This document shows, in pieces, positions 1 to 21,772 of a stretch of DNA of 21,772 nt. A program made the translations under genes and the position numbers. Every line of letters begins with the position of its first letter. Positions within the stretch are counted from its first letter, which is position 1. The notes beneath the pieces were generated by a model. It saw only the letters and a list, made by a program, of their open reading frames with translations, was not told the DNA's origin and searched no databases. Origin of the DNA: a virus; IMG/VR virus record IMGVR_UViG_3300042731_005433, positions 1 through 21,772 of that record. The stretch is one strand, 5' to 3'.

Positions 1-487
1 TAAATATATCATTTTGCAACTTCAGCCTGAAGTGAGCAAAGTAATAATCCCTAACAAAACTAATACAATCCTGAAAGAAAGGTATAAAAATTCTATTTTC
101 TAGAGATTGCGGCTTAAAAGATTTAGGATAATACAGAAAACTTTCATTAGTTAATAAAGAAAAAATATAAGAAGGCAAACCTAGGGATTCTGAAATCTCA
201 ATATCTAAATCACTTGGCTGTTCATCATAATCTATGTGTGTATGAAATAGAGATATTATATTACCTTTAATAAAATGCTCAGAAAATAAATTATTATTAA
301 TTGAAAAATAATCTTTATAAACTTTGTTTTCGTTCGTTAAGCTTAAAAATTCATAATCAGTTTTGTAATCCTTATATACAAATAAACCACAAGACTCTCT
401 ATCGATATGAGTCTTAGCAAACTTTAAGCATTTGAGTATAGGTTTAGTGCTTCCAAGTACCCGGAAATCCTCCAAATGGTAATCCAT
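1..487 (-). CDS. K: Lambda gpK-like tail-tip peptidase (JAMM + NlpC/P60), 3' end outside window
   Basis: My translation gives at least 162 residues, open to the window edge. The N-terminal part carries a JAMM/MPN metallopeptidase signature: Glu31 in ESCGL, then H82-T-H84, then S92-D-L-D95, which fits E...HxH...SxxD. After it, FQDCISFVRDYY (Cys141) fits the start of an NlpC/P60 cysteine peptidase domain, whose His would lie off-window. Lambda gpK has the same two-domain plan and is thought to act at the tail tip, probably cutting peptidoglycan during entry. I chose the ATG at 487-485 because AAGGAGG sits 6 nt upstream; it overlaps the L-type gene by 44 nt. No other good start lies between it and the conserved Glu. 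Position directly after L supports the call. The partial NlpC/P60 domain is the less certain part. Confidence 0.88.
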   Translation of the reverse strand, partial: MDYHLEDFRVLGSTKPILKCLKFAKTHIDRESCGLFVYKDYKTDYEFLSLTNENKVYKDYFSINNNLFSEHFIKGNIISLFHTHIDYDEQPSDLDIEISESLGLPSYIFSLLTNESFLYYPKSFKPQSLENRIFIPFFQDCISFVRDYYFAHFRLKLQNDIF

Positions 488-1319
488 TAATAGCCTCCTT
501 GTCACCAAATCTAAGCCTGCATCCTTTCACGTCCTTACTGCAAGAATCCTCTACCCATTTGGTTTTATCACTTTCAGGATTAGCTCCTACAGTTCCATTA
601 ACCAAGCAAACAAAAAATTTTGCAGGCAAGGATGGATTCGCTTTATTGCTTATTTTTACATATTGCCCTCGATTATAAGTTGCTGTTGAGCTATACTCTA
701 ATGGTGACCCAGCTCCAGTAACAAAAAGTTCGTTGTTTTTAGAGTCGGCAACAGGAGCTTTGCCAGCATAACCACAACCGACACCACTACGATAAGCCCA
801 CTGACAAACATTAAATACAATTTTTCTATTTGGAACTAATGCATGCTCTTTTTCTAAAGGGGAACTCAATTCCCACTGTATGATTTTTGCATTTTCAGTA
901 GTTTTTCTGTTGATCATATATTTTTCTACAGGAAAAGAGTCTTCTGTAGGGCTACCATATGGATTTGTGTTATTGGGAAAATTGTTTCCATGAAGAAATT
1001 TTACAAATGTCCTAATTCTTCTAACTTCGTAGCCAACAAAATCTTTAAAATATCTACTCTTTAAACTAAAAAAGGAATCTGTATTGTCTGCAGTAATTGA
1101 AGGCCTAGGTAAAGAATCTTCAGCAAAATCAAAGCCATCAGCTTGTATTGGATGGAATAAATAATTTTTACCTTTATAGTAAATGTCATTAAGGTAGCCA
1201 TTTTCGCCAGCGTGAAAATAATATTTTTTCCCTCCGTCATCCTTTAGTATGATCTCAAACAAAACAACAAGAGCGGATGGCTCAAGAGACATAATCTCTT
1301 TGTGTATATTTAATTCCAT
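444..1319 (-). CDS. L: Lambda gpL-like minor tail protein with an inserted module
   Basis: This 291-aa protein matches the lambda gpL plan: N-terminal PSALVVLFEI, a mid-region PIQADGF...RPSITADN, then VGYEVRRIRTFVKFL, then CQWAYRSGVGCGYAG. Four cysteines (C172, C182, C260, C267) correspond to the set that binds an iron-sulfur cluster in lambda gpL (known for the family; here inferred). The C-terminus ends LPFGGFPGTWKH, a Gly-rich ending I associate with the family. Gene L products sit at the tail tip beneath the central fibre. Oddity: about 65 residues (193-258) separate the two Cys pairs and read like a small carbohydrate-binding (CBM5/12-type) module, with YNRGQYV and a closing W255-V-E-D; it adds a fifth Cys (C238). 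The ATG has no Shine-Dalgarno, so translation is probably coupled to the upstream gene 14 nt away. Confidence 0.92.
   Translation of the reverse strand: MELNIHKEIMSLEPSALVVLFEIILKDDGGKKYYFHAGENGYLNDIYYKGKNYLFHPIQADGFDFAEDSLPRPSITADNTDSFFSLKSRYFKDFVGYEVRRIRTFVKFLHGNNFPNNTNPYGSPTEDSFPVEKYMINRKTTENAKIIQWELSSPLEKEHALVPNRKIVFNVCQWAYRSGVGCGYAGKAPVADSKNNELFVTGAGSPLEYSSTATYNRGQYVKISNKANPSLPAKFFVCLVNGTVGANPESDKTKWVEDSCSKDVKGCRLRFGDKEAINGLPFGGFPGTWKH
494..500 (-). promoter_or_regulatory. Strong Shine-Dalgarno that sets the K-like start
   Basis: The minus strand reads AAGGAGG here, 6 nt before the ATG at 487. It lies inside the coding sequence of the upstream L-type gene, so K-like translation can start independently while L is still being read. 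It is one of only two near-perfect ribosome binding sites in the minus-strand operon. Confidence 0.8.
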
Positions 1320-2503: not shown

Positions 2504-3675
2504 TATTCTAAATTTTGTACTACCTCAATGCTTCCATTTAAATAACCAGCAGACTGTACACTTAAACTCTGTTTTGTTATTGGTCCATGGCATTTAAATT
2601 CGTGCAAGAATCCATTTGAATTATCATCAAAGCTTGAGTAATTTAAATCTTTTAATTTCACTTTCAGCTCTGCAGTATCGCCATGAAAGTCTGAAGTTAA
2701 CAGTTCTGTATCCATAGTGTCAGCAGTTAAAGACATTGTGATTATTGTGTTTCTTTTTGTAACCCTTTCTGGTTGGAGTCCTACGTTTGTATCGTTTGTA
2801 TTTATATCTGGACACACGAACTTAGGAGTTCGCTCTACCTGTATAGAATAACTAAATGTAGACACATTTTCCTGACCAAAAGCATCAGCACCTAAAACTA
2901 AACTATTTTGACCATGAGGAACAGACTGTTGGTCATACAAAGAAGAGCTATAATAACCGTCAACAACTTCTGGCACTTTACGAATCTCTCCATATAAGTC
3001 GAAAGAAGCTGTTGCTTGAGAAATAGAGTTAGGAGCCAAAGAAAACTTAAAACTTTTTAAATAGGCATGATCAAAACAAAACTCACCCAGAAAACCGGTA
3101 ATTCTTTCTTCGTCCAGAGGTGGAAAAACAGTTGGATCAGAGAGTCCAGTTATATTGAAAAAGTGAGGCAGATTACCTTCATTAACATAGAAATTAACAT
3201 CTAGAGATCCAACGATAGGGGAGTTGGTTATATATTTGTAATGAGGTTGAATATAACCTTGTTGAGCTTCTTCTTCTGTGAGTGACCAAGGCCCATCTTT
3301 TGAGTAAACTGTGATTACATAATCTCCACCATCTGGGTAATAGTCATCATGAAAATACAGAGTTTTACCATTCGGGAATTTTATCGGACTGTCTTTCGGT
3401 ATGTGTCTGATTGATGTAGCCAAAGGTGTTGCTGGGCCTTTAGTTGGTCCTAGCGTTGCATGATGAATTTGATTTTTAGTAAATGTTGGCGAAGAGTATT
3501 CCAAAGAACTAGAAAAACCAAAAGCACATATTCGGATAATATTATCTTCTCTTTGTCTTGCAACCCCAAGAGGGTGATTAACATTTAAGCTAGCGTTTTC
3601 TGCAAAAATATATTCACCTGCCGACCCATTGACAGCAAGGTATAGCGGTACATCTTCATATGGTAAAAAGCTCAT
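2503..3675 (-). CDS. Tail-tube-like structural protein, paralogue B (390 aa)
   Basis: I do not recognise this from a named family, but it is related to the 269-aa neighbour encoded just before it. Shared landmarks: PIVGSLDVNFYV (B) with PLVGNFSVSRYF (A); SQATASFDLYGEI with SDASFIVYGNI; VSTFSYSIQVER with VTQFSYTMRVDR; and SVQSAGYLNGSI with LRYAGYINTKS near the C-termini. The protein looks all-beta with few helices. About 95 residues (roughly 55-150) have no counterpart in A and include a Tyr/Asp-rich stretch, so B probably carries a surface insertion. Beta-rich proteins between the tape measure and M-type genes would fit distal tail or tube-adaptor roles. The start overlaps the previous stop as ATGA. 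Confidence covers the gene; function is inferred from position and paralogy. Confidence 0.75.
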   Translation of the reverse strand: MSFLPYEDVPLYLAVNGSAGEYIFAENASLNVNHPLGVARQREDNIIRICAFGFSSSLEYSSPTFTKNQIHHATLGPTKGPATPLATSIRHIPKDSPIKFPNGKTLYFHDDYYPDGGDYVITVYSKDGPWSLTEEEAQQGYIQPHYKYITNSPIVGSLDVNFYVNEGNLPHFFNITGLSDPTVFPPLDEERITGFLGEFCFDHAYLKSFKFSLAPNSISQATASFDLYGEIRKVPEVVDGYYSSSLYDQQSVPHGQNSLVLGADAFGQENVSTFSYSIQVERTPKFVCPDINTNDTNVGLQPERVTKRNTIITMSLTADTMDTELLTSDFHGDTAELKVKLKDLNYSSFDDNSNGFLHEFKCHGPITKQSLSVQSAGYLNGSIEVVQNLE

Positions 3676-4481
3676 GATTTAGTATTTATGTATCCAGCAT
3701 ACCTTAAGTTTATTGTAATTAAATCATCAGATGAGGTAGCAATGTTTTGATCCAAAAGTCGTGCATTATTTATAGTAAAAGTTTCTATACTATTTTGATT
3801 AATAGGATTTTTAAAACTTAAATTCAAAGAAGATTGCATTCTTGGTTTGACTAAATACTCTCTAATCTTGTCAATTTCAAAGTCATTGCATTCTATCTCA
3901 AAAGATGCCTCTTGATAGACTGGGCATTTTCTGTCAACTTGTATAGGGTAAGGAGAGCCTATTTTGTAAAGAGCTTCTCTGTCTACTCTCATTGTATAAG
4001 AAAATTGGGTCACTCGATTGGTTTGATAACCAGCGCAATCAACTGTTATTGATCCTTGGTTGGGTATTTGTATGGCTGGGTGCTCTTTCGTGTCGGTAGC
4101 ATCAATGCCATCTCCTATGTTGCCATAAACTATAAAGCTAGCATCAGACTTTGGTATACTTCCAACACCAGCAGACACACTGTACTGAGTTAAGTATCCA
4201 CTAGTAAAGCCAAATTTTTGATCGTCGTTAAAATTAATACTACCACTAATTGGATTATCTCCAGTGAAATTTAAAAAATAATCTTCACCAATAAAATACC
4301 TAGATACAGAGAAGTTGCCAACTAAAGGCCCTTGCCTTACCGGATAGACATATCCTTGACCAATTATATTAATTGGCTCTTCTTGTACAGAATAACCTCC
4401 ATCTATACTAGTAACACCTGACAGTAAAACTCCGTCTAGATAAAATTGTTGTTCGTAATTTAATACCGCATTTTTAGCCAC
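3672..4481 (-). CDS. Tail-tube-like structural protein, paralogue A (269 aa)
   Basis: A beta-rich 269-aa protein that appears to consist of two similar halves. In half 1 (about 22-122) the elements are SVQEEPINIIG, PVRQGPLVGNFSVS and GYLTQYSVSAG...ASFIVYGNI. In half 2 (about 156-266) they are TMRVDREALYKIG, VDRKCPVYQEASFEI and ARLLDQ...DLITINLRYAGYI. A two-fold repeat of a tube-like domain is a known way for phages to build trimeric, pseudo-hexameric tail components; that it applies here is inference. It could be the main tail tube protein displaced to this side of the tape measure, since no other candidate is visible, or a distal tail protein. The start is GTG at 4481-4479, chosen because AGGAGG lies 8 nt upstream; it overlaps the tape measure stop by 8 nt. 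Confidence 0.75.
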   Translation of the reverse strand: MAKNAVLNYEQQFYLDGVLLSGVTSIDGGYSVQEEPINIIGQGYVYPVRQGPLVGNFSVSRYFIGEDYFLNFTGDNPISGSINFNDDQKFGFTSGYLTQYSVSAGVGSIPKSDASFIVYGNIGDGIDATDTKEHPAIQIPNQGSITVDCAGYQTNRVTQFSYTMRVDREALYKIGSPYPIQVDRKCPVYQEASFEIECNDFEIDKIREYLVKPRMQSSLNLSFKNPINQNSIETFTINNARLLDQNIATSSDDLITINLRYAGYINTKS

Positions 4482-7400
4482 TCAACATACCTCCTACCCT
4501 TTTTTCTTGTGCGATGATTCCAACTACCGCGTCCTTGATCCTTGATGCAAATGCTTGTTGCTCTCCGTCTCCACCTTGAGCTTCTGCTTTTCCTGAGCCA
4601 GAAACATTAATATTAACAGTCACATTGCTTGAGCTTTTTTGGTTATTATTTGTTGTACTAGAATTGTCTACACTACTAGAACCTCCAGCTATATCAACTG
4701 GTCCACCTTGGTTCATTTTCATTGTGTTTAATTTATCAAAAAATCCGGGATACTGTTTCTCTACATTAGAAACGCTGGAAGCTTTAATTACATATTCGCC
4801 TCTATCCAGCATCACTGGACCAACTTGATCTATTCCTCCCGGCCCAATAACTTTACCATTTCTAGTTAAACCTCCGTCTTTCATTTTGGTAATATTATTA
4901 CCTATGCTAGTAAAACTATGAACAGATCCACCTCTATTAAAATTTTGAATCAACCCACCTTTATTCTTCTTGTCTAAATCAACTGTGTATTTTAATCTTT
5001 CTAAAGCCATAATTGCATCGGCTTGAGCATTTTGATTTAATTCGTGAGTAGTTGGGCCTGATTTTAATCCCGGAATAGCAGGTGCAGAATCAGCAGAACC
5101 AAAAGACATCACACTATCTCCAGATGTGCCCGTGGAATAAGTGCCTTTATCAATAGTAATGCCAGCACTTTGAGCCCTTGCGGCACCTATTTCAAGTAAG
5201 CTACCCCCTCCCAATCTTGGGCCTAAAGCTCTTCCTCCAGCTGGTTCGCCAGAAGTTTGAGCCTGTTGAGCATCAAGTGTTGCGTCCACCTTGAACTCGT
5301 TTAACATTTTATTTTCTTGGCGATTTGCCATACCGGTTTGAATCTTATCTCCAACATAATTACCTATTGCTGTGCCAGCAGCCATACCAACAACATTAGC
5401 TACAGCCTGCCAAGTTTGTTGTTTTTCTAAGGCTTTTTGATTGTTTTGTTGAACATCGTATTCATACTTATCTAAAAGGTATTGACCGTAATCCTGAGAG
5501 TACTGATCGTTTTTCCTAAACCTAGCACTCATCTGTTTTCCAGTTGGATTAACATTTAATCTGGAAGATGTGTTCAATTGACCCGGTTTCTTTGGTGCAG
5601 TAGGACCCTGATATTCTTGGTCTTTTTTGTCTCTGGCAGCTAATGTACCAAGCATTCCTCCTAGACCGCTGGCCATATTTGAATAACCTTGGCGTCGTTG
5701 GGCTTGTTTGTTAGTTAAGCCACCTTTCTGCATGTATACTATTCCACCTTGATTAAAACCAACTAATCTTTCTCTTTCTTTTTCTCTCTCAGTAGTTTTT
5801 TGAATAATTTTATCTCGATTATTTTTATTTTCTAAATACCACCTATTACCTAATTTACCATACATATCTTGGGTAAGCTTGGTTTTAACTAAAAATCCAT
5901 CTACTGAGCCCCCTTCTTCAAACATGGGAAGAGTGTTTTGCATCAAAGATTTCATTCTGTTTTGATTTCCCATATTTTGCCCAAGCTTGGGTTTCTTATG
6001 GTTTGCGAAATTGTTAGTTAGTTCGTCTTGCAAGGTTGCTTCTCTTCTATTTTTGTTAGATAAATACCAACGATTACCAAGAGATCCGTAATTATCTACA
6101 GTAGCTTCCATTGCACTAAAAGAATCTTTCTCGTAAGGATTTTTTTTACGTGAACCTATGTTATCATAATAACCATCAGCTAAGCCTCCCGTTGCAAAGC
6201 GTCTAAGCCCTTCATTTAAATTGATTGATTGATTAGAGAATACAGAAGATCTATCATTTTGTGAAGCTGTATCACCCTCATCTCTCTGTGAGGTACCTAT
6301 ACCATTAGAGAATACAGATTCTCTATCGTTTTTAGAATTAGTATCTCCAGCTTTGCCGCCATTTGCAAGATGTACAAGCCCACCATTAAACCTACTTAAT
6401 ATATTGGAAAACTCATTAACTTCATCAGAAAAAACAGAAGATCTATCATTTTGAGAATTTGTATCACCTTCGTCTTTTTTATTCATAAGCATTCTATCAA
6501 TGCTGCCACCATCTTGAAATTTGACTATTGGGGGAGCCGCTATACCGCCCTCGTTAAATAGTGAAAATTGATCTTCGTTTGGCTTGTTGTATAAATCTTC
6601 CAAAGAGCCTTCTTCGTTTAACTTATCCATAGTTCTAAGACCTAACTTATCTACAACTTTCTTCCTTACAACATATTCACCAGAGGTTAACATAGCTGGG
6701 ACATCTTTAGCGGTTCCTCCACGAGAATATTTTTCAACAAAACCTCCAGTGTGATATTGCTGTAATCCCATCATACCGAAAAGACCACTGGTCATTTGGT
6801 CTGCAAACCTATCAAACATTTTGTCTTGCATTTTCTTAGCAATTCCACCAATGAATCCCATCATCATTTCACTAGTACTCTTAGTGCCGTCAGAAATATC
6901 TTGAAGTAAGCCCTTAAATCCATCCTTTACTGCATCAAAGCTAGTTTCACCTAAATCCGCAGAGAAGTTAACCAGTCTTTCATTGGCTTCAGCCAATTTC
7001 ACTCTCCACGTATCAAGCAATAAAGATCCTTGACCCATTTCTTTATTATACTCTAACTGTCTTTTTTGAACATCGGTGTTCGCTTCGGCTGCTTTGTATG
7101 CATTTCCAGTAGATTGATAAAAATTTCTTTGAGCTCCAGCTTCTTGTAGACCTTGCTGCATTCCTTCTCTTTGGCTCTCAATACCTTCAACGGCTCTTCT
7201 GGCGTAAAAACCACCTTGCATCTTTTGCTGATGAGTTTCTGCTTCACGACCCCTTGCATTTTTGGCTTGCTGTTCTTCGTTTACAATTTGATCTGCAATT
7301 ACAGCTCTCAACTTAGCTTTGTCCTGAACCAGCGCAGTTTCTTGAGCGAGGACTTCTTGCTGTTGTGAGATAATTAATTGCTCAACACCCAATTGAGTTT

Positions 7401-10400
7401 TAGCGGCTTCAGATTGACCTTCAACAGAGTTTAAGTATTCTACTCTGACCTGAGACTCTTCTATGAGTTGTTGATTTTTGCTTGCAGTTTCTTGTAGGGA
7501 GAATTTAATTTCTTCCCTAACTACTGCAGCTAATTTTGCTTTATCAGCAGTAATCGCTTTCTCTTGTGTCAATTGTTTTTTAGATTCTGCTAAAATTGCT
7601 TCACGATCTGCTAGAGCGGCCTCGTTAGATAGAGTTAAACCTTCTTGAGAACTTAAAAACTGTTCTGCGAGTTTAGCTTCCTGTATTCTACGTTTAGCTT
7701 TATCTTTGGTTCCTGTGAGGGAATTTTTGACTTCGCCACTAACAATTTGACCTAGCTTTTCTGTATCCCCAGTGAGGGCTGCATCCATAGCTATTTGTTT
7801 GCGTTGTTGATCTATAGCTAAAAGCCTATTGCTATACTCTTCTTCGCCAACACTTTGTAAATTAGATCTATTAGCTAACCATTCCATTTGAGCCGCAAGT
7901 TCTGTTCTGTCGTTCGCATTTTTTTGGATCGTAGTGGCAATATTTTCTTTTAACACATCACCCACCTGTTGGCTATACTGAGAATTTTGTTGATTAGTTC
8001 TAGCTACTTCTTGGTAGTACTCAAGACTACCAGCAGTTATATTTGCAGCTTTCTTTTCTGATTCTACTTTTTTATTCTTAATATCTAATGTTGTTGATTC
8101 AGCTTTTACGCTAGCATCAAGAGTGTCATTAAATGCTTCAAGTTTAGCATTAGAAAAATCTACTTGAGTTAATCCAAGTTCTTGGAGAGTTTTATAAAAA
8201 TCAGCCAATTGACCTACTGTCTCAAGAGTATTAGCGTAAGCTTCTAAGTGGTCAAGTATTTGATTTGGAGCTTTACTTGCAGAAATGTCATTAACTAATG
8301 ACTGCTCTTTGGTTGCTTTGCCTCCGGGTCTAACATCAATTTTACCTTGTTGCAAAAAGGATCCTTTTAGTTTATCTGCAAATTTTTCTTTACTTCCTTG
8401 AAATACACTTTTGCCGCTGGCATCTACTTTTTTGCCAGTTTCAGGATCTTCAACTTTTAAAACGCTATCTTGAATAATTCCTTTCTCGAAAGCTTGCTTA
8501 GTAAAAGCTCTACCTTTTTGTAAATATTCATCATTTAAACTTTGCACATTTGCTGAATAGTCTAGCTGATTCTGTGTTATTTTTTCCTCTGCATCAGCTC
8601 GTATCTGTTGAGCTTTAGTCATAGTACCTAATGATTGCATGAATTGGTTTCTGGTGCTCAATTCAGTCATAGCTAGATCGTGAGCACTTTGTTGGAGTTG
8701 CATACTAATCTGAGCCATTTGGGCTTGCCTTTCTAGACTTGCAAACATTTCAGCACGCTTCGCTCTAATTTGATTGATTAATGTGGTGTCGCCTTCAATA
8801 ATCTCAGTACCTTTGTCTACCTCACCAACTTGCAAATTCAAAGCTTCAACCATGCGATTTATGGCTTCAGAAATTTCATCTGTATGAATACCTTTACCAG
8901 CCAAACCTTGAATTGTTTCACCAAGTACACCTAGTCCTTCTGTACCGCCCTTGGCGGCCATTTTCTTGTAAGCTGCTCCGACACCACCTCGACCCCTGCC
9001 CTCTTTGTTTATTGCTTGACCGGTTCGTTTTAGCTTGTCCCTTGCTTCAGTGATTGCAATATTGATTTCTTCTTGACTAGACCCTTTCATGTCTTTATTG
9101 ACATTTTTGACAAAATGTTCTACCAGTTGAAGAGTCGCTGACGCTTGAGCATTATCATTTTTATCTTTTTCGTCAGTTTTTTTACCTCCAAAGAATTTTA
9201 CTCCACTAGCATTTTCTAAAATTGTCTTCTTGAGACTATCTCCAAAATTAACATTTTCCAGTTCAAGAAGTTTTTCTTGAATGGCAGCTATGCCCTCTGC
9301 AGTGCCGGAACCCATGAGTTTCATTTGCTCTGCTGTAAGATTGGTTTCTTTTGATAAATGAGCTAATGTATTAGCTAGAGCTGTTTCTGCAGATTGCTTT
9401 TGCCTCAAAAGAGTTAATTCTTCCATCCTCCCTTTAAATGTACCTTTGAGTGTAGAGTTTTCTAAATCTTTTAGTTTGGCATTTGTTTTTTGGACTGAAT
9501 TACCTGCATCCAGAGCACTTGTAAATCCTTCTATTTGTTTAGAATTTTTCTCCATCTTATCATTCAGGAGATCAAGATTATCTTTGAACATATTAGTCTC
9601 ATCATTCAGATACTGAAAAACTGGTATTGCTGCGCCAACTACAGCACCTAAGGGACCAAGATATCCAGCGAATTTTCCGACTTTACCTACAAGACCACCC
9701 TTATTGCCAAGTTTTTCTGCAAGACCTTTGCCAACTTCACCCAAGCCTTCTTTAAATAACATTGCTTGAGTACCAGCTTCAGCTAATGTAGTTAAACCTC
9801 TAACCGCAGTACCAACTTCTCCTTCAACTTCTGAGAATGCTCCCTGTAGTCCATAAGCAACACTGGTTAACATAAAATATCTTCCAGTTAAATCTGAAGA
9901 TACAGCAGCTTGCTCTCCTAGCTCTTGAGCAGTCTTGCCAGCTTGGTTAGCAACATCATTTAATCCCTTTTCAAGGTTCTTAGTGTTAAGTTTAGCAGCT
10001 GGGCCAGCTTGGCCTGATTTAGCGCCGGCTATCCCCCAACTAAAGTTAGGAACTAGGCCTCTAGCGGCTCCATGAGTTTGTGGGTCAATGCCTTGCTCTT
10101 TAGATCTATTGATACCCTCTTGTACTCCTCCGGGTTCGTCTATTTTATTGGTTACAGCTAAACCCATTGGGTTCATGGGATTTTTTAGCTGGCTTGATTG
10201 TTCAACTTTAATTAAAGATTTTGGTATACCTGCATCAGACTCTCTCTGTATGGCTTGCTCTAATGCATTCTTTGTGAAGTTCGGAACCAATCCCTTAGCA
10301 TAGTCATTACTATTCTGACTACCCAGTTCATCAGCTTTCATTTTGTCTTCCATTAACTCTTTTCGCTCTTTAAAGTTTGGTATCAAGCCAAGACTTGCAG

Positions 10401-13400
10401 CGATTCTTCCCATAAAGCTATCATCACTGTGCTGTAACCAAGGTCTAGTAACATCAGGCAAGTTGAGTGAGGCAGATTGAGATCGAAGACTTTTCTTTAC
10501 TTTGTTTTGAACTGCTGCGCTGAGACCTCTGAATTCTTTACTATTTAAAAATTGCCTAATCTTCTCATAGTTTCTGGCGGTTAATCTTATACCTTTAGCT
10601 CCAGATATTGCAGTTTTTGCGTACAGTGCATTGCTGGTATTGAAGCTTGCGATTGCGGTACTAGTTGAGTTAAAGTCATCTTTACCCATTTTTTCGGCCT
10701 TGGTTTTCTTTTTGTTTTTATATTTTTCAATTTTAGAACCAAGACTAAAGTTAGGCAGTAAGCTACTTTTGTCGCCAATATTAGAAAAGTTAGGGACGTG
10801 ACCTTCGGCGTCAAAATCTGATTTCCTTGATCTGCCGACATAAAGAAATTTTCTCATTTCCTTGACTTGAGTTTTTGAACCTCTGCCATACTTTTTCATA
10901 TAGCCATCAGGGCCAAGTTCTTCGTAGTCTTTTAATTGTTGTTTGCTGAAACTGGATTTGCCAAAATGATATTTCGTATCTTCATCTTTATCACCTAAAG
11001 TTCTGCTGGACTTTTGACCAGTTAAAGACTTCATTTGACTTTCTATTGCAAGTCTTTTAGGGTGGGCTTTTTGGTCCTCAGCCCATATTCCTCTTTTTCT
11101 AGATTTAGCTGACTCTAAGTTGGATCTGTATGTAGAAAGACCAGTGTATCTTAAGTCTGGGATTCCTAGGCCAGTATTAACTAACTCTTTAGCTAAAACA
11201 TTATCTTTAAATAAACCCCTATTATAACTACCATCACCTTGTTCAACAATATTTTTTTCAAGCCGCTTCGATCCCTTTTGTCCAGAATAATATTTCTGAG
11301 CTAACTTAGTAGCATCATTACCTAAAGGCTCCCAAGATTCAATAGCATCAACTTCATTGAGGCGGTGATCGACAGGAACAGCCTTCGCTGTCTGAACCAT
11401 ACCAACAATACTATCTCCGTCTTTTACTTGTTGAATAGATTCAACTTTTACATTTTTAGCGAAGTTAGGCACAAATCCACCAGCTTTTAGTTGTGTGATT
11501 TGACTCCATATTTTATTGGCCTCCCCATTTAATTTACTTATCAATGGGTCAACTTCAGCTCTAGGCCTCCCAGATGTAGCCAGCTGTTTAGCTTGATCAA
11601 GTTTTGCTTGCCATTGCCTTAAGAGCTTTTTTCTGTCTGCGTCTTTGTTAATGAGTTTTATAAAATTGGGCACATAACCAGAAGAGTAGTTTGTATGATT
11701 TCTACTACCCATATCGGCAAACCTAGACTTTCCTTCAGTACCTTCCTTGGTCTCATCTTTCATTTTTTCACTAAAAGAAGGAATTAAGCCAGAACCAAAG
11801 AAACTAGAACTACTTGATTTACGCCACTCATTAACCAAGCCTTGCATCTTGTCATTGGAAACAAAAGATCGTAAACGGCTAGTCTCTTCGCCGGGAAGCG
11901 GAGAAACTGTATTGTGGGCTTTCTTCTCATAAAAACCAGCATTACCTGATTTTACTTTTTTATCTGTGTCCCAATAGTTATCGTAATAAGATTTAGATTG
12001 CTTGGATAATTCTTTTTGTAAAGAGTTAACTTGTCTGGGTGGCAATTTATTGTTTGTGCGAACCCAAGACAGAAACGAAGTAAGTTCATTAGTTTTACCT
12101 TTTAATTGGTTGTACCATTCCTTTTGCCAACTACCAGAATCATCCTCTTTAAACTTTTGGTAAGTTTTTCTTTTTGGGTCCCAAGTAGAAATTTTACCTT
12201 TAGGATCAGGAACTCCCTTGAAATACCTAGAGGCTCTATTAGCTTTTACAAAATTAGGAACCATTCCACTACCAAAAATTCTGTAACTATCTGGATTTTT
12301 AGCTAAAGATTCTAAGTCTTTTTTATCGTAACCTTTTTTGATCAAATAATCTTTTAAGCTTCCACCTAAATAACTTTGCTTAGGGTTCGCTTTAAACTCC
12401 CTTAACATCTCTTGGTCCCACATGCTTTTTGCCTTGAAATGTTTTGGTTTAGGCATTCTAAATTTTATACCTTTATTTGCTGGATCAGACAAGACATCTC
12501 TGATTTTTTGTGCCCTGCTTCGAGGGTCAATAAAATTAGGTATTAAACCGCTAGACATATTGTATGCATTTACGGTATCAATATCGCCATCTAGACCCAT
12601 TCTATTAAGAGTATCTTTTTGTCTGTCAAGTTTGGTTTTGTCATACTGGTCAGCAATAGATTCTCTTCCGCTATCTTTTAAGAAGTTGTTCAGGCTCTTG
12701 TCTGAATATTGATATAAACTTTTAGCGATTAAATTCGCATCAGAAAAACTATTAGCTTTTGCCTCAAGAGGGAACCTACCTTTTCTAACAAAATCAAAAG
12801 ACGCAGAAACATCACCTTTGCCTTTTTTATCTTTAACAAATTCATTAGCAGGCTTCATTCTCTTCCTGCTCTTGCCAGCATATTTAACTGTGCCTGTATG
12901 AGTGCGAATAAAATTCTTTTTCTTTAATCCCCCTTTATCTAATTCTTGCTCGTACACATTGCCGAGTAAGTCATTATACTTGTTACCTTTGCCTCTGGGC
13001 GTAAGTATAGAGTTTACTCTAGCTCCAGCAGAAGTTTTCCCTTTTTGATCTTGATCGGAAAAATAAAAAGGTCTGGATATCTTACTGATTCCCATGTCTT
13101 GTAGCTCTTGAAGAGCTGGAGAAAGATTTGCTCCACCTCTAGTCATGATGTCGCTAATTTTAGCTTCAAGATCTTTCCAGCCTTTAATGCCTTTTATATA
13201 CAAACCTTTACCTTCTGTAGCTGATGTCTGAACAAACATTCTCGCTTTAGGTAGTTTTAATGTGGTTCCCATTCTGTGCGCCATTGCCATGTTTGGTATG
13301 AAGCCCTTCGCATAGCTTTCGCTATTCATGCTTCCGCCATCTTCATCTTTATGTTGTTTTTTGTCTTCTTCTTTTTTTAGAACAGAAGATTCAGGAATAA

Positions 13401-15333
13401 AGCCTTCAGAGAAGCTTTTCTTTTCTTTCTCTTTTTTATATGGATCAAATCCATGTTTACCCTTAAAGTCGTCTAAATATTTTCTGCCAGCCTTACTTTT
13501 TTCTGGCGGCATGATTGCTGGTTGCCTTAAACCCTGAAAGGTAGTAACGGTTTCCGCGTTATTATATACAACATCACCCAAGCCCTTGACATTCATCTTC
13601 ATAACTTTTCCGGGCATATATCCAGATTTTACAGCCAAAGCTTTTTCTTTTTGTTGTTCAATTGGAGTTGGATCACCAGCTGAATAGTTAGGGATAAAAC
13701 CAGCAGCGCTACTCTTACCTCCCCTTCCGGTCGGTAAAGTTAATTGACTTGTTACACCCATTTTGGCAAGCTTTGGAGCTAGACTACTAGCAATTCTTTC
13801 TTGATCTGCTAATGCTTTTGTTTGTAATTCAATTTGTTTTAAAATTATTTGTTCTTGCTTTACCTTATCTCCAGCATATTTATGTAGCTCTAGTGCAAGA
13901 TTTTTATTGTTCTCCATAGCTAAGACTATAGATTCTTGAATATTTTTTTCCTTATCTTTTGCTGACACAATACCCAAAACATCCTTAAGGGAAGCTTTCG
14001 CAAATGACAATGCATTTGTAAAAAGTTTAGCAAAAACACCGAAAGCTAAAACAACACCCGGACCAGTAAGGACACTACCTATTCCCTTGACTATACCTCT
14101 GGCAAAACTTGAACCACTTTCTTCACCATCACCTAAAAGATCGTTTAATCCTCCCGCAAAAGAATTGATGGCTTCAAGAAGCTTTGATATTCCCGGAGAC
14201 AATGCAAGCTCACCAATGTTTGCAGAAAGCTCTTGAATAGTTAGTGATGTTTGAGCGGCAAGAGAGCTTATTGTTTTCTGAAGCATCTCATTTTTCTTTT
14301 GAGCTTGATCTGTAGCTTGATTGGAAATTTTAGTTGCTTGAGCATAGAGAGAGTTTTCTCTACCCAAGTCTTTCAAGGCGGCCTTCAGTACGTTGATTTG
14401 GAAAACGCCACCAACCTGCTCCGCTATAGCAGCACTTGTAGCATCACCCATATCTTTATATGCATCTGCTAGATTTTTGAGTACGGAAATAGCGGGCAGG
14501 GTACTGCCTTCTATATCTCTTACAGCTACCCCAAGTTTTTCTAAATTATTTAAAGTGCTACTTCTTTGTATACGAGTAAAAATTGTTTTAAAACTATTTC
14601 CAATAACCGCACCACCACGAGCTGTGATTTGTTGGGCAGCAGTAACAGCACCAACAAGCTGGTCAAAATTAACACCAGCATCTTGAGCTACTGCCCCTGC
14701 ACGAGCCAAAGCATCAATAAGATCGTCAGCACTAACGGCAAACTTAACGTCAACAGCTGCAAGTTTATTAATGATTGCAGTGGTAGAAAGCCCAGCATCA
14801 GCAAAACCATTCGTAGCAGCAGTTAAGCCTGAAACAGCATCCGCAGCTTTAATGCCAGTCAGCCTAGTTAATATCAAAGCATCGTTCGTTCTTCTTAAGG
14901 TTTCTTCCATCGATAAACCTTGACGTGAAAATTCAAGAGCAGCTTCAGCCGCAACATCTAATGCTTGAGATGTGTTTCTAGCTACATCAAATAAATCTCT
15001 ACCAAATTTTTGTAAATTTGAACTAGAAGTGCCAAGAACAACATTGATATCTGTCAATATTTTTTCTACATTAACTGCCTGTACTACAAGCTCTCTGAAT
15101 GCAGTAGTGACTCCACCAATAATAGCAGCAGATGCACCAAACGCAATAACACGAGCATTAGAAGCTTCTAGAGATTTACTAAATTCATCAGCTTTCTGCG
15201 TGATGCGACCAAGAGGCTGAGTGAAATCAGAAGCTCTGACCTTTACATTAATACCCCTCCTATTAATACGATTGACTACATCGTTAACGGACTCTTCAAG
15301 TCCAATCTGTTCTGTTCTTATTCTAAGTGACAT
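4474..15333 (-). CDS. Giant tail tape measure protein with embedded nuclease-like modules (3619 aa)
   Basis: The tape measure sets tail length, fills the tube and is ejected ahead of the DNA. Residues about 85-335 are a TP901-type core (LQKFGRDLFDVARNTS, LEFSRQGLSMEET, ARGGAVIGNSFKTIFTRIQ). A hydrophobic stretch follows at about 415-440. Residues 545-1764 hold 13 short G-x-x-P-N-F-type motifs separating lysine-rich, unlike modules, including an SNase-like domain (about 1295-1417) and a possible PD-(D/E)XK domain (about 785-885). A second membrane-like segment lies at about 1887-1908, a long helical region with 74-residue repeats at 2453-2705, and Gly-rich F-x-x-G-G repeats at 2863-3544. Two GEYV blocks (2885, 3512) are of a type common near tape measure C-termini. 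Typical tape measures are 700-2000 aa. The frame is open throughout with no visible frameshift. The ATG follows GGAATAAGG. Confidence 0.96.
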   Translation of the reverse strand: MSLRIRTEQIGLEESVNDVVNRINRRGINVKVRASDFTQPLGRITQKADEFSKSLEASNARVIAFGASAAIIGGVTTAFRELVVQAVNVEKILTDINVVLGTSSSNLQKFGRDLFDVARNTSQALDVAAEAALEFSRQGLSMEETLRRTNDALILTRLTGIKAADAVSGLTAATNGFADAGLSTTAIINKLAAVDVKFAVSADDLIDALARAGAVAQDAGVNFDQLVGAVTAAQQITARGGAVIGNSFKTIFTRIQRSSTLNNLEKLGVAVRDIEGSTLPAISVLKNLADAYKDMGDATSAAIAEQVGGVFQINVLKAALKDLGRENSLYAQATKISNQATDQAQKKNEMLQKTISSLAAQTSLTIQELSANIGELALSPGISKLLEAINSFAGGLNDLLGDGEESGSSFARGIVKGIGSVLTGPGVVLAFGVFAKLFTNALSFAKASLKDVLGIVSAKDKEKNIQESIVLAMENNKNLALELHKYAGDKVKQEQIILKQIELQTKALADQERIASSLAPKLAKMGVTSQLTLPTGRGGKSSAAGFIPNYSAGDPTPIEQQKEKALAVKSGYMPGKVMKMNVKGLGDVVYNNAETVTTFQGLRQPAIMPPEKSKAGRKYLDDFKGKHGFDPYKKEKEKKSFSEGFIPESSVLKKEEDKKQHKDEDGGSMNSESYAKGFIPNMAMAHRMGTTLKLPKARMFVQTSATEGKGLYIKGIKGWKDLEAKISDIMTRGGANLSPALQELQDMGISKISRPFYFSDQDQKGKTSAGARVNSILTPRGKGNKYNDLLGNVYEQELDKGGLKKKNFIRTHTGTVKYAGKSRKRMKPANEFVKDKKGKGDVSASFDFVRKGRFPLEAKANSFSDANLIAKSLYQYSDKSLNNFLKDSGRESIADQYDKTKLDRQKDTLNRMGLDGDIDTVNAYNMSSGLIPNFIDPRSRAQKIRDVLSDPANKGIKFRMPKPKHFKAKSMWDQEMLREFKANPKQSYLGGSLKDYLIKKGYDKKDLESLAKNPDSYRIFGSGMVPNFVKANRASRYFKGVPDPKGKISTWDPKRKTYQKFKEDDSGSWQKEWYNQLKGKTNELTSFLSWVRTNNKLPPRQVNSLQKELSKQSKSYYDNYWDTDKKVKSGNAGFYEKKAHNTVSPLPGEETSRLRSFVSNDKMQGLVNEWRKSSSSSFFGSGLIPSFSEKMKDETKEGTEGKSRFADMGSRNHTNYSSGYVPNFIKLINKDADRKKLLRQWQAKLDQAKQLATSGRPRAEVDPLISKLNGEANKIWSQITQLKAGGFVPNFAKNVKVESIQQVKDGDSIVGMVQTAKAVPVDHRLNEVDAIESWEPLGNDATKLAQKYYSGQKGSKRLEKNIVEQGDGSYNRGLFKDNVLAKELVNTGLGIPDLRYTGLSTYRSNLESAKSRKRGIWAEDQKAHPKRLAIESQMKSLTGQKSSRTLGDKDEDTKYHFGKSSFSKQQLKDYEELGPDGYMKKYGRGSKTQVKEMRKFLYVGRSRKSDFDAEGHVPNFSNIGDKSSLLPNFSLGSKIEKYKNKKKTKAEKMGKDDFNSTSTAIASFNTSNALYAKTAISGAKGIRLTARNYEKIRQFLNSKEFRGLSAAVQNKVKKSLRSQSASLNLPDVTRPWLQHSDDSFMGRIAASLGLIPNFKERKELMEDKMKADELGSQNSNDYAKGLVPNFTKNALEQAIQRESDAGIPKSLIKVEQSSQLKNPMNPMGLAVTNKIDEPGGVQEGINRSKEQGIDPQTHGAARGLVPNFSWGIAGAKSGQAGPAAKLNTKNLEKGLNDVANQAGKTAQELGEQAAVSSDLTGRYFMLTSVAYGLQGAFSEVEGEVGTAVRGLTTLAEAGTQAMLFKEGLGEVGKGLAEKLGNKGGLVGKVGKFAGYLGPLGAVVGAAIPVFQYLNDETNMFKDNLDLLNDKMEKNSKQIEGFTSALDAGNSVQKTNAKLKDLENSTLKGTFKGRMEELTLLRQKQSAETALANTLAHLSKETNLTAEQMKLMGSGTAEGIAAIQEKLLELENVNFGDSLKKTILENASGVKFFGGKKTDEKDKNDNAQASATLQLVEHFVKNVNKDMKGSSQEEINIAITEARDKLKRTGQAINKEGRGRGGVGAAYKKMAAKGGTEGLGVLGETIQGLAGKGIHTDEISEAINRMVEALNLQVGEVDKGTEIIEGDTTLINQIRAKRAEMFASLERQAQMAQISMQLQQSAHDLAMTELSTRNQFMQSLGTMTKAQQIRADAEEKITQNQLDYSANVQSLNDEYLQKGRAFTKQAFEKGIIQDSVLKVEDPETGKKVDASGKSVFQGSKEKFADKLKGSFLQQGKIDVRPGGKATKEQSLVNDISASKAPNQILDHLEAYANTLETVGQLADFYKTLQELGLTQVDFSNAKLEAFNDTLDASVKAESTTLDIKNKKVESEKKAANITAGSLEYYQEVARTNQQNSQYSQQVGDVLKENIATTIQKNANDRTELAAQMEWLANRSNLQSVGEEEYSNRLLAIDQQRKQIAMDAALTGDTEKLGQIVSGEVKNSLTGTKDKAKRRIQEAKLAEQFLSSQEGLTLSNEAALADREAILAESKKQLTQEKAITADKAKLAAVVREEIKFSLQETASKNQQLIEESQVRVEYLNSVEGQSEAAKTQLGVEQLIISQQQEVLAQETALVQDKAKLRAVIADQIVNEEQQAKNARGREAETHQQKMQGGFYARRAVEGIESQREGMQQGLQEAGAQRNFYQSTGNAYKAAEANTDVQKRQLEYNKEMGQGSLLLDTWRVKLAEANERLVNFSADLGETSFDAVKDGFKGLLQDISDGTKSTSEMMMGFIGGIAKKMQDKMFDRFADQMTSGLFGMMGLQQYHTGGFVEKYSRGGTAKDVPAMLTSGEYVVRKKVVDKLGLRTMDKLNEEGSLEDLYNKPNEDQFSLFNEGGIAAPPIVKFQDGGSIDRMLMNKKDEGDTNSQNDRSSVFSDEVNEFSNILSRFNGGLVHLANGGKAGDTNSKNDRESVFSNGIGTSQRDEGDTASQNDRSSVFSNQSINLNEGLRRFATGGLADGYYDNIGSRKKNPYEKDSFSAMEATVDNYGSLGNRWYLSNKNRREATLQDELTNNFANHKKPKLGQNMGNQNRMKSLMQNTLPMFEEGGSVDGFLVKTKLTQDMYGKLGNRWYLENKNNRDKIIQKTTEREKERERLVGFNQGGIVYMQKGGLTNKQAQRRQGYSNMASGLGGMLGTLAARDKKDQEYQGPTAPKKPGQLNTSSRLNVNPTGKQMSARFRKNDQYSQDYGQYLLDKYEYDVQQNNQKALEKQQTWQAVANVVGMAAGTAIGNYVGDKIQTGMANRQENKMLNEFKVDATLDAQQAQTSGEPAGGRALGPRLGGGSLLEIGAARAQSAGITIDKGTYSTGTSGDSVMSFGSADSAPAIPGLKSGPTTHELNQNAQADAIMALERLKYTVDLDKKNKGGLIQNFNRGGSVHSFTSIGNNITKMKDGGLTRNGKVIGPGGIDQVGPVMLDRGEYVIKASSVSNVEKQYPGFFDKLNTMKMNQGGPVDIAGGSSSVDNSSTTNNNQKSSSNVTVNINVSGSGKAEAQGGDGEQQAFASRIKDAVVGIIAQEKRVGGMLSG
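4490..4495 (-). promoter_or_regulatory. Shine-Dalgarno for the GTG start of the 269-aa gene
   Basis: The minus strand reads AGGAGG 8 nt before GTG at 4481. It lies within the last codons of the tape measure gene and decides the non-ATG start. The strength fits a need for many more copies of this protein than of the tape measure. Confidence 0.75.
5812..6090 (-). repeat. Two copies of a YGxLGNRWYLxNKN peptide in the tape measure
   Basis: Copies start at Tyr3082 (YGSLGNRWYLSNKNRRE) and Tyr3158 (YGKLGNRWYLENKNNRD), 76 residues apart. Each comes shortly before a Gly-Gly motif, which suggests that a larger cassette, including the F-x-x-G-G element, was duplicated. Confidence 0.85.
6235..6468 (-). 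repeat. Three copies of a GDTxSxNDRxSVFS peptide in the tape measure
   Basis: Copies start at Gly2956 (GDTNSQNDRSSVFS), Gly2996 (GDTNSKNDRESVFS) and Gly3020 (GDTASQNDRSSVFS). The first and third share a run of about 18 identical bases (ACAGAAGATCTATCATTT on the plus strand), so this duplication looks recent compared with the 74-residue repeats. They lie between F-x-x-G-G motifs. Confidence 0.85.
7219..7977 (-). repeat. 74-residue tandem helical repeat in the tape measure (residues about 2453-2705)
   Basis: Repeat units begin at Asp2523 (DTEKLGQIVSGEVKNSL), Asp2597 (DKAKLAAVVREEIKFSL) and Asp2671 (DKAKLRAVIADQI), exactly 74 residues apart. A more diverged unit precedes them from about 2453 (YSQQVGDVLKENIATTI). 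The last copy is cut short at about 2705. Units are helical and rich in Gln, Glu, Ala and Lys. DNA copies are diverged, so the duplications are old. Confidence 0.75.
11074..11451 (-). other. SNase/thermonuclease-like domain inside the tape measure (residues about 1295-1420)
   Basis: The segment follows the staphylococcal nuclease pattern in order: VKDGDSI (D1305, D1307); H-R1324-L-N-E-V-D1329-A-I-E1332, matching R-L-x-x-x-D-x-x-E with the same R-to-D (5) and R-to-E (8) spacing as nuclease Arg35, Asp40 and Glu43; D1367-G-S-Y-N-R1372-G-L, matching D-x-Y-G-R with Arg87; LAKELVNTGLG, matching the N-E-A-L-V-R-Q-G-L-A helix; and a closing GIWAED (W1417), like NIWSED. All catalytic positions are kept, so activity is plausible. 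It is bounded by a PNF motif just before (G1286) and the next at G1511. The family match is by eye from remembered SNase residues. Confidence 0.85.
12679..12981 (-). other. Possible PD-(D/E)XK nuclease-like domain inside the tape measure (residues about 785-885)
   Basis: The order of elements fits a restriction-endonuclease-like core: a helix with N792-V-Y-E795-Q-E, a basic stretch, then SFD847F, a short gap, and PLE857-A-K859-A. That gives D-x9-E-x-K, followed by a helix SDANLIAKSLYQY. PNF-type motifs flank the larger module (G677 and G929). PD-(D/E)XK folds diverge strongly and the motif is short, so this is a moderate call; another alpha/beta fold with a chance E-x-K cannot be excluded. 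Confidence 0.45.
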
Positions 15334-16368: not shown

Positions 16369-17217
16369 TCACAAATTACCCTCTTCTACATCTGCCTCTA
16401 GCTGCTTAAAATCTTCCTCGGTAGCAGCAGTACTAAAGTACCAAAAACTAATAAATGCAGTTAACTTATCGTAAACTATAGCCAGAAGCTCATCTTCATC
16501 TTCTTCCTTTTGATAAAAATCATTTTTCTTTTCTTCGAAAGTCTCACCTTCAAAAAATGAAACCAATTTACCCCCCACCTCAATATAACTTAAACTCAGG
16601 AGATACCAAGTAATGACTTTATTCTGAGCTCTAGTATCTGCAGTATGATTTAGTAAAGCGCTAAAATTAGTTTCAGCAGTAGCTATAGATCTGCGCAAAA
16701 TAGACATCTCTCCAGAAACTTCTTTGATTCTTTCTTCGTTTTTTTCGTTATTAGCTGCCATGTTAAGCTTAGTGAACTCCGTTTGTAGTTGTCCAAGCTC
16801 AGCATATAATGCACCTAGTTTTTTAGCATCGGCCTCACTAAGCATACCTCCTGTGTCTGTATACTTATTCATCAACATGGCTTTCGTTAAGACTCCCTGC
16901 TTGACACATTTACTCATTTCAATGCTGTATTCCATGTCAGCCTCCTCCATCTGCCTGCGAGTAGGTTGCCGAAGAACAAACTGATGCTCTTTTTTTACGA
17001 CTTCCTTTCGGACCTCCTTAACGATTTGTTTTTCTTTAACTTTTCGTTTTTCTTTTTCTTTGTACTTTTCTTCAGTACCATCTTCTTTAGTGCGAGTCTT
17101 TTCGACTTCCACATCCTTCTCAACCTCAACTTCTTTTTCGACATCTACTTCTTTTTCCTCTTCGACATCTTGAAAGATCTTGAAACGATAAATTTCTTTG
17201 TTATTTTTTGTATACAT
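16369..17217 (-). CDS. Putative tail assembly chaperone-position protein with a Val-Glu-Lys repeat (282 aa)
   Basis: Residues about 17-78 are an extraordinary low-complexity segment of alternating Val, Glu, Lys and Asp (KEVDVEKEV, EVEKDVEVEK, then KYKEKEKRKVKEKQIVKEV). It starts acidic and turns basic, so it may fold as a hairpin or coiled structure on itself. From FVLRQPTRRQMEEADMEYS (about 80) onward the protein is helical, with GVLTKAMLMNKYTDTGGML and a long coiled-coil-like region to about 185, then an aromatic segment and an acidic end. Its place two genes before the tape measure is where lambda gpG lies. No sequence link to gpG is visible to me. The ATG is preceded by AAGGAATAAGGT. Confidence 0.75.
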   Translation of the reverse strand: MYTKNNKEIYRFKIFQDVEEEKEVDVEKEVEVEKDVEVEKTRTKEDGTEEKYKEKEKRKVKEKQIVKEVRKEVVKKEHQFVLRQPTRRQMEEADMEYSIEMSKCVKQGVLTKAMLMNKYTDTGGMLSEADAKKLGALYAELGQLQTEFTKLNMAANNEKNEERIKEVSGEMSILRRSIATAETNFSALLNHTADTRAQNKVITWYLLSLSYIEVGGKLVSFFEGETFEEKKNDFYQKEEDEDELLAIVYDKLTAFISFWYFSTAATEEDFKQLEADVEEGNL

Positions 17218-20961: not shown

Positions 20962-21772
20962 ATGGCCACAAATCACTTTAATGTTTACTATAGTTTTCTG
21001 CATAGAAATGAATCTCCATATCTAGCGGATGTATATAGAGTCTTCAGGCAAGAAGACGGAGGAGCATGGGATGCTATTGCTGAGCATCCCGCTGGAAAAA
21101 TGGGAGACCCTGTGTTGGTTACAGGTATGGATGTTGTAAGAGATTGCAATATTCAATACAACTACAAGGTTTCTGCCTACAATAATCAAGGAGAGGTGTA
21201 TTGTATTAATCCTTTAGTTTCAGGAGTTAATTTTCCATGTCCTACTCCATCAAGAACTCAAACTTCTACACCTACTACACCAACAGCAACCCCAACCAAG
21301 ACGCAAACAGGCACTCCCACACAGACCCCAACAAATACGAGCACACAAACTCCCACGCAAACACCCACACCCACACAAACTGTAACAAAAACCCCAACCC
21401 TTACACAGACACAGAGTCAAACCCCAACTAATACACAAACACAAACTCAAACACAGACTCAGACTCAAACACAGACTCAAACACAGACTCAGACTCAGAC
21501 GCAAACACAAAGTCAAACAGTTACCCAAACACCAAGTCAGACCGTTACTAAAACACAAACACAAACGCAGACACAAACTTTAACACAAACACCAACAGTT
21601 ACTGCAACACAAACCGTTACGCCGACCCATACAGAAACTCAAACCGTAACACCTTCTGCTACAATAACTCAAACTCCAACAATCACACAAACACCTTCGG
21701 AGACACAAACACAAACAGTTACCCCATCTCACACCGAAACTCAAACTGTTACTCCATCGGTATCACAAACAC
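20962..21772 (+). CDS. FN3-like head with a Thr/Gln/Pro repeat tail, 3' end outside window
   Basis: My translation gives at least 270 residues, open to the window edge. The first 90 or so (MATNHFNVYYSFLHRNESPY, then ADVYRVFRQEDGGAWDAIAE, then IQYNYKVSAYNNQGEVYCI) read like a fibronectin type III domain. From P94 the chain is almost only Thr, Gln, Pro, Ser and Val, with T-x alternation (TPTQTPT, TQTQTQ, QTVTPSHTETQTVT). Such segments are extended, mucin-like and, in theory, open to O-glycosylation. A capsid or tail decoration, or a fibre stalk, is likely. The protein may continue into a C-terminal domain off-window. It lies 23 bp after the 760-aa gene; GAG just before the ATG is a weak ribosome site. 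Confidence 0.85.
   Translation, partial: MATNHFNVYYSFLHRNESPYLADVYRVFRQEDGGAWDAIAEHPAGKMGDPVLVTGMDVVRDCNIQYNYKVSAYNNQGEVYCINPLVSGVNFPCPTPSRTQTSTPTTPTATPTKTQTGTPTQTPTNTSTQTPTQTPTPTQTVTKTPTLTQTQSQTPTNTQTQTQTQTQTQTQTQTQTQTQTQTQSQTVTQTPSQTVTKTQTQTQTQTLTQTPTVTATQTVTPTHTETQTVTPSATITQTPTITQTPSETQTQTVTPSHTETQTVTPSVSQT
21241..21772 (+). repeat. Thr/Gln/Pro-coding low-complexity repeat
   Basis: The DNA is an imperfect array of short units such as ACACAGACTCAG and ACACAAACTCAA, densest at about 21430-21520, within the reading frame above. A longer unit, roughly CACACCGAAACTCAAACTGT, recurs at about 21629-21650 and 21731-21751. The unit sizes are multiples of 3 in the dense part, so slippage would keep the frame. 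The plus strand is nearly free of G, which produces Cys/Leu-rich open frames on the other strand by chance. Confidence 0.9.

What the first reader, a model, noticed from the sequence alone, without database searches (positions are those of the whole stretch)
10042..13701. Tape measure punctuated by 13 PNF motifs that separate unlike modules
Residues 545-1764 of the tape measure contain 13 copies of G-x-x-P-N-F or a close variant. Between them lie modules of 13 to about 250 residues that do not resemble one another, at least one clearly enzymatic. Codons vary between copies while the peptide is kept. The layout suggests a cargo cassette: the motif could mark protease cleavage, dock each module to the tube wall, or mark insertion points. 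I know of no established function for this motif. This is my best candidate for an undescribed system: a tape measure that delivers several effector domains.
Basis: partly seen in the sequence, partly recalled or inferred. Interest (0 to 1): 0.88.

Follow-up and report, generated by a model that had tools for sequence, protein, structure and literature searches.

The report
Tape measure carrying swappable effector cassettes
In this uncultured phage and at least 200 relatives, the protein that sets tail length carries a string of unrelated, mostly enzyme-like domains separated by the short peptide GFIPNF, and phages swap, add or lose whole domains exactly at that peptide, which suggests that the tail is a loadable syringe of host-targeting effectors.

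Summary
In detail: residues 545-1764 of a 3619-aa tape measure protein (TMP) carry 13 G-x-x-P-N-F copies (9 strict, 0.02 expected) around unlike modules. The feature is widespread. In L009/L011 nearly every neighbouring module is 99.5-100% identical while module 6 is replaced; across five pairs, 11 of 12 DNA junction ends fall at a motif. Modules form 119 sequence families, including thermonuclease (all catalytic residues kept), GNAT, GHKL ATPase and P-loop, and by signature only PD-(D/E)XK, ADP-ribosyltransferase, HAD and kinase-like. Cargo is always soluble. Cargo length scales with the C-terminal part (phylogenetically corrected r = 0.64) but not with the N-part. No INPHARED phage and no paper I could search describes it. 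Best reading: a polymorphic cassette array delivered through the tail, with the motif as junction signal (processing site likelier than dock). Architecture and exchange are shown; delivery and motif function are inferred.

The parts
4474..15333 (-). tape measure protein, 3619 aa
   Evidence: PhageMin_Tail Pfam 1.4e-23 and PHROG tape measure 5.9e-44
13702..15333 (-). N-terminal conserved TMP part (residues 1-544) with PhageMin_Tail; near-constant length (about 530-650 aa) in nearly all complete relatives
13684..13701 (-). motif 1 GFIPNY (545-550)
13405..13701 (-). constant module A (545-643): AGY..G.V..GLG.V.YN..E....F....QPAIMPP..S.AG..Y...F...HGFDPY
   Evidence: profile found in 64 of 124 TMPs; family of 39
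13306..13404 (-). motif variant GFIPES (644) and short linker
12550..13305 (-). cargo 677-928, probable PD-(D/E)XK-type nuclease (invariant D171 and E181-x-K183)
   Evidence: alignment A5 of 11 members; fold search inconclusive
12268..12549 (-). cargo 929-1022, family found at other ordinal positions in L004, L005, L007, L017, L021 and L024
11791..12267 (-). cargo 1023-1181, related to module 5 of L005 (40% over 116 aa)
11680..11790 (-). motif variant GLIPSF (1182) and linker
11479..11679 (-). short module 1219-1285
10804..11478 (-). cargo 1286-1510, staphylococcal-nuclease-like domain with all catalytic residues
   Evidence: profile A4 against PDB thermonuclease E 3.7e-10; active-site residues invariant in 7 members
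10765..10803 (-). motif GHVPNF (1511) and 13-aa empty interval
10390..10764 (-). motif SLLPNF (1524) and cargo to 1648, family shared with L007, L008, L009, L011 and L017
10294..10389 (-). motif GLIPNF (1649) and linker
10060..10293 (-). constant module Z (1681-1758): AI.RE..AGIP.S.I.I....L...NP.GL.V.N..DEP.G...GI
   Evidence: profile found in 94 of 124 TMPs; family of 74 in 74 TMPs
10042..10059 (-). last motif GLVPNF (1759-1764)
4477..10041 (-). C-terminal part (1765-3619): probable coiled-coil ruler and Gly-rich tail; its length scales with cargo length across the family
2..508 (-). JAB/JAMM-like peptidase (E..HTHx7SxxD), lambda gpK-like position; possible but not conserved TMP protease candidate
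   Evidence: Prok-JAB E 0.0027; JAMM ORF downstream of 1 of 29 TMPs

Best explanation
The TMP is a loadable cargo carrier. Between its N-terminal domain and its C-terminal ruler lies an array of independent soluble domains, each bracketed by the hexapeptide G-[FYLH]-[IV]-P-N-[FY]. Constant modules A and Z usually flank variable cargo. SHOWN by sequence: the array, its specificity to TMPs, gain, loss, duplication and swapping of whole modules with seams at the motif, intact enzyme signatures, and longer C-terminal parts with more cargo. INFERRED: the array is stored in the tail tube and enters the host with the DNA, where the domains act as early effectors. Several modules would use ATP, NAD+ or acetyl-CoA, which points to the cytoplasm. 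The motif is a junction signal read by a phage-specified partner. Most likely (about 0.4) it is a processing site that frees cargo from the two hydrophobic ends; next (about 0.3) it is a dock that holds modules on the tube wall or a chaperone.
For: Motif 9 strict versus 0.02 expected. TMP-specific: 545 motif matches in TMP ORFs, 1 in 230,560 aa of other ORFs; 66/66 motif ORFs with a 5' end have the TMP N-domain; a second pattern scan gave 92 further multi-motif ORFs, 79 with module Z and 71 with the TMP N-profile. Swaps in near-identical TMPs; 11 of 12 DNA junction ends within 5 nt of a motif against 4-7% by chance, including L009/L011 base by base. 119 module families, 68 singletons. Enzymes: SNase PDB E 3.7e-10 with catalytic residues intact, GNAT 6.7e-8, GHKL 3.8e-5, P-loop PDB E 3.7e-6, R-S-E ART signature, HAD signature. 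Cargo soluble in 33/33, N-part hydrophobic in 30/33. Cargo~C-part length PIC r 0.64, p 0.0016; cargo~N -0.05. Within-TMP motif subtypes are more alike than shuffled, 0/2000. Sister clade keeps xPNF at both ends of single cargo. TMP N-end sits at the neck and C-end at the tip in 80alpha, and TMPs are thought to be ejected (PMC11661146).
Against: No virion, proteomic or infection data. No conserved protease found. Fold searches for the PD-(D/E)XK-like module and for A-cargo-Z were inconclusive, with modest model confidence. Many modules have no assignable function. The window's own motif 2 (GFIPES) and GLIPSF depart from the core. The correlation of cargo with C-part length has other possible causes.
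Confidence: 0.68

Rival explanations
1. The motif is a docking peptide, not a cleavage site: each copy binds a groove on the tail-tube lumen, a tail assembly chaperone or the TMP bundle, holding cargo in place and letting it slide out intact on ejection.
For: Short strict hydrophobic/aromatic motif in low-confidence linkers of the AlphaFold model; motif subtypes are lineage-specific, as with a phage-encoded partner; spacing is free (8 to several hundred aa).
Against: A motif closes the array after module Z as well as opening each module, and 13-16-aa empty motif pairs occur, which cleavage or scars explain more simply. No partner identified.
Confidence: 0.3
2. The motif is only a recombination seam or neutral linker: a shared stretch that lets cassettes be exchanged, with no role in the particle.
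For: Swap junctions fall at motifs at DNA level; mild codon bias for G, I and P.
Against: All synonymous codons are used and N and F codons match background, so selection acts on the peptide. The core is kept across TMPs whose N-domains are about 31% identical, and the sister clade with a single cargo still keeps xPNF.
Confidence: 0.12
3. Modules act in the envelope during DNA entry (cell-wall or periplasmic enzymes), as in TM4-type TMPs, rather than as cytoplasmic effectors.
For: Known TMP enzyme domains are peptidoglycan hydrolases (PMC1796659).
Against: No peptidoglycan hydrolase family among 114 module representatives; the recognised families are nucleases and ATP-, NAD- or acetyl-CoA-dependent enzymes.
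Confidence: 0.1
4. Cargo modules protect the entry complex or genome (for example against membrane nucleases such as SNIPE that bind TMPs) instead of attacking the host; diversity reflects escape from TMP recognition.
For: SNIPE binds TMPs and cuts entering DNA (PMC13190303), so variable TMP regions could be under such selection; PADLOC match of one module to an SNc+LTD model (2e-5).
Against: Escape alone does not explain intact catalytic sites or shared enzyme families.
Confidence: 0.12

Closest known systems
Polyvalent proteins of phages and conjugative elements (Iyer et al. 2017, PMC5512222)
   Same: Many unrelated enzyme domains (ART, GNAT, peptidase, ParB-like and nuclease types) in one polypeptide predicted to be injected with DNA.
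   Different: The paper's text does not contain 'tape measure'; there the proteins are packaged in the head or carried by conjugation. No punctuating peptide is described in the passages I read. Here the carrier is the tail ruler.
Mycobacteriophage TMPs with enzymatic motifs (TM4 mt3, PMC1796659)
   Same: An enzymatic domain inside a TMP; deleting it left a viable phage with tails about 20 nm shorter.
   Different: Single peptidoglycan hydrolase motif; no array, no GFIPNF, no nuclease or cofactor-dependent cargo.
Sle1-type effectors of actinobacterial contractile injection systems (PMC13277306)
   Same: TMP-related protein with a diverse, exchangeable functional domain, loaded in a tail-like tube.
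   Different: From bacterial contractile particles; the abstract describes one functional domain per effector, not an array; no motif seams reported in the parts read.
Polymorphic toxins (Rhs, CDI; PMC3482391)
   Same: Conserved carrier with domains exchanged by recombination.
   Different: There one C-terminal toxin is swapped; here many internal domains between a conserved N-part and a conserved ruler, in a phage structural protein.

Membership tests
Tape measure protein (siphophage, PhageMin_Tail type) | PhageMin_Tail N-domain, very long protein, tail-gene neighbourhood | tested here: met
   Pfam 1.4e-23, PHROG 5.9e-44; minor tail protein genes downstream
Tape measure protein (siphophage, PhageMin_Tail type) | length sets tail length | not testable with these tools
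   no virion available
Staphylococcal nuclease family (module 1286-1510) | sequence profile and catalytic D21, R35, D40, E43, R87 equivalents | tested here: met
   PDB thermonuclease E 3.7e-10; all five equivalents invariant in 7 members
PD-(D/E)XK nuclease (module 677-928 and the largest cargo superfamily) | E...D...(D/E)xK signature | tested here: met
   invariant D171, E181-x-K183; G..FE...D...DxK in other families
PD-(D/E)XK nuclease (module 677-928 and the largest cargo superfamily) | fold match | tested here: inconclusive
   Foldseek best E 0.64; VIA-align 2 best Z 2.9; no PDB profile hit
Polyvalent protein | several disparate enzymatic domains in one polypeptide | tested here: met
   (across the family; two nuclease-type modules in the window itself)
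Polyvalent protein | packaged and injected | not testable with these tools
   no virion or infection data
Polymorphic toxin | variable toxin domain at the C-terminus | tested here: not met
   variable modules are internal, followed by a C-part of about 900-2700 aa
Polymorphic toxin | adjacent immunity gene | not tested
   not examined systematically
TM4-type TMP enzyme motif | peptidoglycan hydrolase domain | tested here: not met
   none of 114 module representatives matched such a family

The most novel reading that the evidence does not exclude
A widespread, undescribed class of phages uses the tape measure protein as a modular multi-effector magazine: host-targeting enzymes are strung in the tail lumen between hexapeptide seams, freed or docked at GFIPNF, injected ahead of or with the genome, and exchanged cassette by cassette between phages, while the ruler lengthens to fit the load.
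Probability: 0.55. Interest if true: 0.95.

Novelty: new variant of a known kind. Interest (0 to 1): 0.87.

Why it matters
It would make the siphophage tail a modular protein-delivery device and give phages a tail-borne counterpart of head-packaged polyvalent proteins. The module set is a ready-made catalogue of candidate early host-takeover or anti-defence domains, most of them without any annotated family. The exact peptide seams suggest how domains are joined so that a tail tube accepts them. It also makes the old question of what else travels with phage DNA testable by one mass-spectrometry experiment on a natural isolate.

Tried and rejected
Whole cargo region against INPHARED phages at E up to 10: no match; A and Z consensus: no match. 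Module-by-module Pfam on the window gave only weak hits (SNase 0.073), so family alignments were needed. Fold searches with both AlphaFold models gave nothing usable. Profile searches of the kinase-like (A9), HAD-like (A10) and PD-(D/E)XK-like (A12) families against PDB sequences gave no support, so those labels rest on signatures read by eye. ART, metallopeptidase-like and HAD modules have no meaningful Pfam hit even at E 0.5. An S78 protease was sought in 14 records and not found. The adjacent JAMM peptidase was considered as a TMP protease but is not conserved beside relatives. Literature searches for the motif strings and for TMP plus effectors found no prior description. I did not test A or Z alone for a known fold.

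Full report
OBSERVATION. ORF 4474-15333 (-) encodes a 3619-aa tape measure protein (Pfam PhageMin_Tail 1.4e-23, PHROG tape measure 5.9e-44). G-x-x-P-N-[FY] occurs 9 times, all in residues 545-1764, against 0.019 expected from shuffles. GFIPES, GFIPNM, GLIPSF and SLLPNF bring the total to 13. Intervals run from 13 to 252 aa; the shortest look like linkers or empty motif pairs.

DISTRIBUTION. A search by the TMP N-domain, blind to the motif, found 19 viral loci at 52-100% identity. Most carry 4-12 strict copies at different spacings, and three of the four members of a sister clade carry none. That sister clade (L015, L016, L018, L020) still has a degenerate xPNF at both ends of a single cargo. 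All 66 motif ORFs whose 5' end is inside the locus have the TMP N-domain. A second scan with GYVPNFA gave 92 further multi-motif ORFs, 79 with module Z and 71 with the TMP N-profile, the others mostly cut. In non-TMP ORFs of the first set the motif was seen once in 230,560 aa. The logo is [AKS][AS]x-G-[F>Y>L>H]-[I>V]-P-N-[F>Y]-A, with PNF seen 548 times against 19 expected (the pattern-chosen loci bias this count upward). Relatives with the motif occur on marine MAG contigs assigned to Halobacteriovorax, Neomarinimicrobiota, Flavobacteriales and Verrucomicrobiales; such bins may be misassigned. No INPHARED phage matches the cargo or modules A and Z.

ANATOMY. The usual layout is N-domain, motif, module A (about 83 aa), one or more cargo modules, module Z (about 76 aa), last motif, C-terminal part. 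In all but one of 34 complete motif-bearing TMPs the N-part is about 530-650 aa, while cargo runs from about 300 to 2016 aa (the exception, L114, has its motifs late in the protein). No cargo region of 33 has a transmembrane-like stretch, although 30 of 33 N-parts do, as do many C-parts just after the last motif. In the AlphaFold model of A-cargo-Z the motifs lie in low-confidence linkers.

EXCHANGE. Near-identical TMPs differ by whole modules. In L009 and L011 every neighbouring module is 99.5-100% identical (the 16-aa one 94%), yet module 6 is 348 aa in one and an unrelated 278 aa in the other. At DNA level identity ends inside the left motif and resumes at the right one. L013/L014, L105/L119, L034/L130 and L131/L136 show further gains and replacements; 11 of 12 block ends lie within 5 nt of a motif, where 4-7% would be expected. 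A caveat: local alignments run through a conserved motif by themselves, so the true breakpoint may lie a few bases inside it. L009 and L011 carry a tandem duplicate of one module, and L038 has two adjacent modules of one family. Modules of 45 aa or more fall in 119 families, 68 of them singletons; cargo sharing falls from 0.56 (Jaccard) above 90% N-domain identity to 0.03 at 30-50%, and some families occur in TMPs with N-domains only 31-34% identical.

MODULE FUNCTIONS. The window's 1286-1510 is a thermonuclease domain: profile against PDB E 3.7e-10, with D19/D21, R35, D40, E43 and R87 equivalents invariant in seven members. 677-928 has an invariant D...ExK, as do the commonest cargo families G..FE...D...(D/E)xK, the signature of PD-(D/E)XK nucleases; the fold search was inconclusive. 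Elsewhere: GNAT 6.7e-8, HATPase_c 3.8e-5, ParB_N 0.007, P-loop protein E 3.7e-6. By signature only: ADP-ribosyltransferase (YRG...SFSTS...EAE), HAD (DWDGT...T.R...VDD) and kinase-like (no profile support).

LENGTH COUPLING. Across 30 complete TMPs, cargo length and C-part length correlate (raw r 0.83; independent contrasts r 0.64, sign-flip p 0.0016), whereas cargo and N-part do not (-0.05). One reading is that a larger load needs a longer tube. In TM4 a 114-aa enzymatic insert itself counts as ruler (PMC1796659). Cause is not shown.

MECHANISM. In 80alpha the TMP N-end sits at the neck and the C-end at the tip, and TMPs are thought to be ejected with the DNA (PMC11661146); lambda TMP reaches the inner membrane during injection (PMC13190303). 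By analogy the cargo would lie in the head-proximal tail and leave last. ATP-, NAD- and acetyl-CoA-dependent modules would work only in cytoplasm (inference from family knowledge). Because a motif also closes the array, and both ends of the TMP are hydrophobic, a processing role (release of soluble cargo from membrane-held ends) is slightly favoured over docking. Motif subtypes are more alike within a TMP than between TMPs, which fits a phage-specified partner, though shared descent of modules could do the same. No protease conserved with the system was found.

NOVELTY. The nearest systems are polyvalent proteins, enzyme-bearing TMPs, TMP-related effectors of contractile particles, and polymorphic toxins. 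None of the passages I read describes an internal, peptide-punctuated array in a tape measure. Because each ingredient has a precedent, I rate it a new variant of a known kind, with a strong chance that direct experiments would make it a class of its own.

Noticed in passing
window 2-508 (-): JAB/JAMM-like ORF with an intact E..HTHx7SxxD signature in a lambda gpK-like position; Prok-JAB E 0.0027, cut by the window end.
   Followed up: partly
window 16369-17217 (-): 282-aa ORF just upstream of the TMP region with a K/E/V repeat (KEVDVEKEVEVEKDVEVEK), possible tail assembly chaperone; no Pfam hit.
   Followed up: no
window 20962-21771 (+): Putative fibre protein ending in a long Thr-Pro-Gln (TQTQTPT) low-complexity stretch.
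   Followed up: no
L156-L160 (89-kb contig holding a copy of the window TMP): Phage genome rich in sugar genes: several glycosyltransferases, three GDP-mannose dehydratase/epimerase family genes, FkbM methyltransferases, a sulfotransferase, plus ribonucleotide reductase and Hsp20.
   Followed up: partly
L042, L091, L135: TMPs in which motifs recur beyond long helical stretches of 740-914 aa, suggesting a second cargo block inside the ruler part.
   Followed up: no
L009 and L011, modules 2 and 3: Tandem duplicate of one 169-aa cassette; L038 modules 2 and 3 are also one family.
   Followed up: partly
L059:5309-7036 (+): 576-aa cargo with a GHKL (HSP90/MORC-like) ATPase domain inside a tape measure.
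   Followed up: partly
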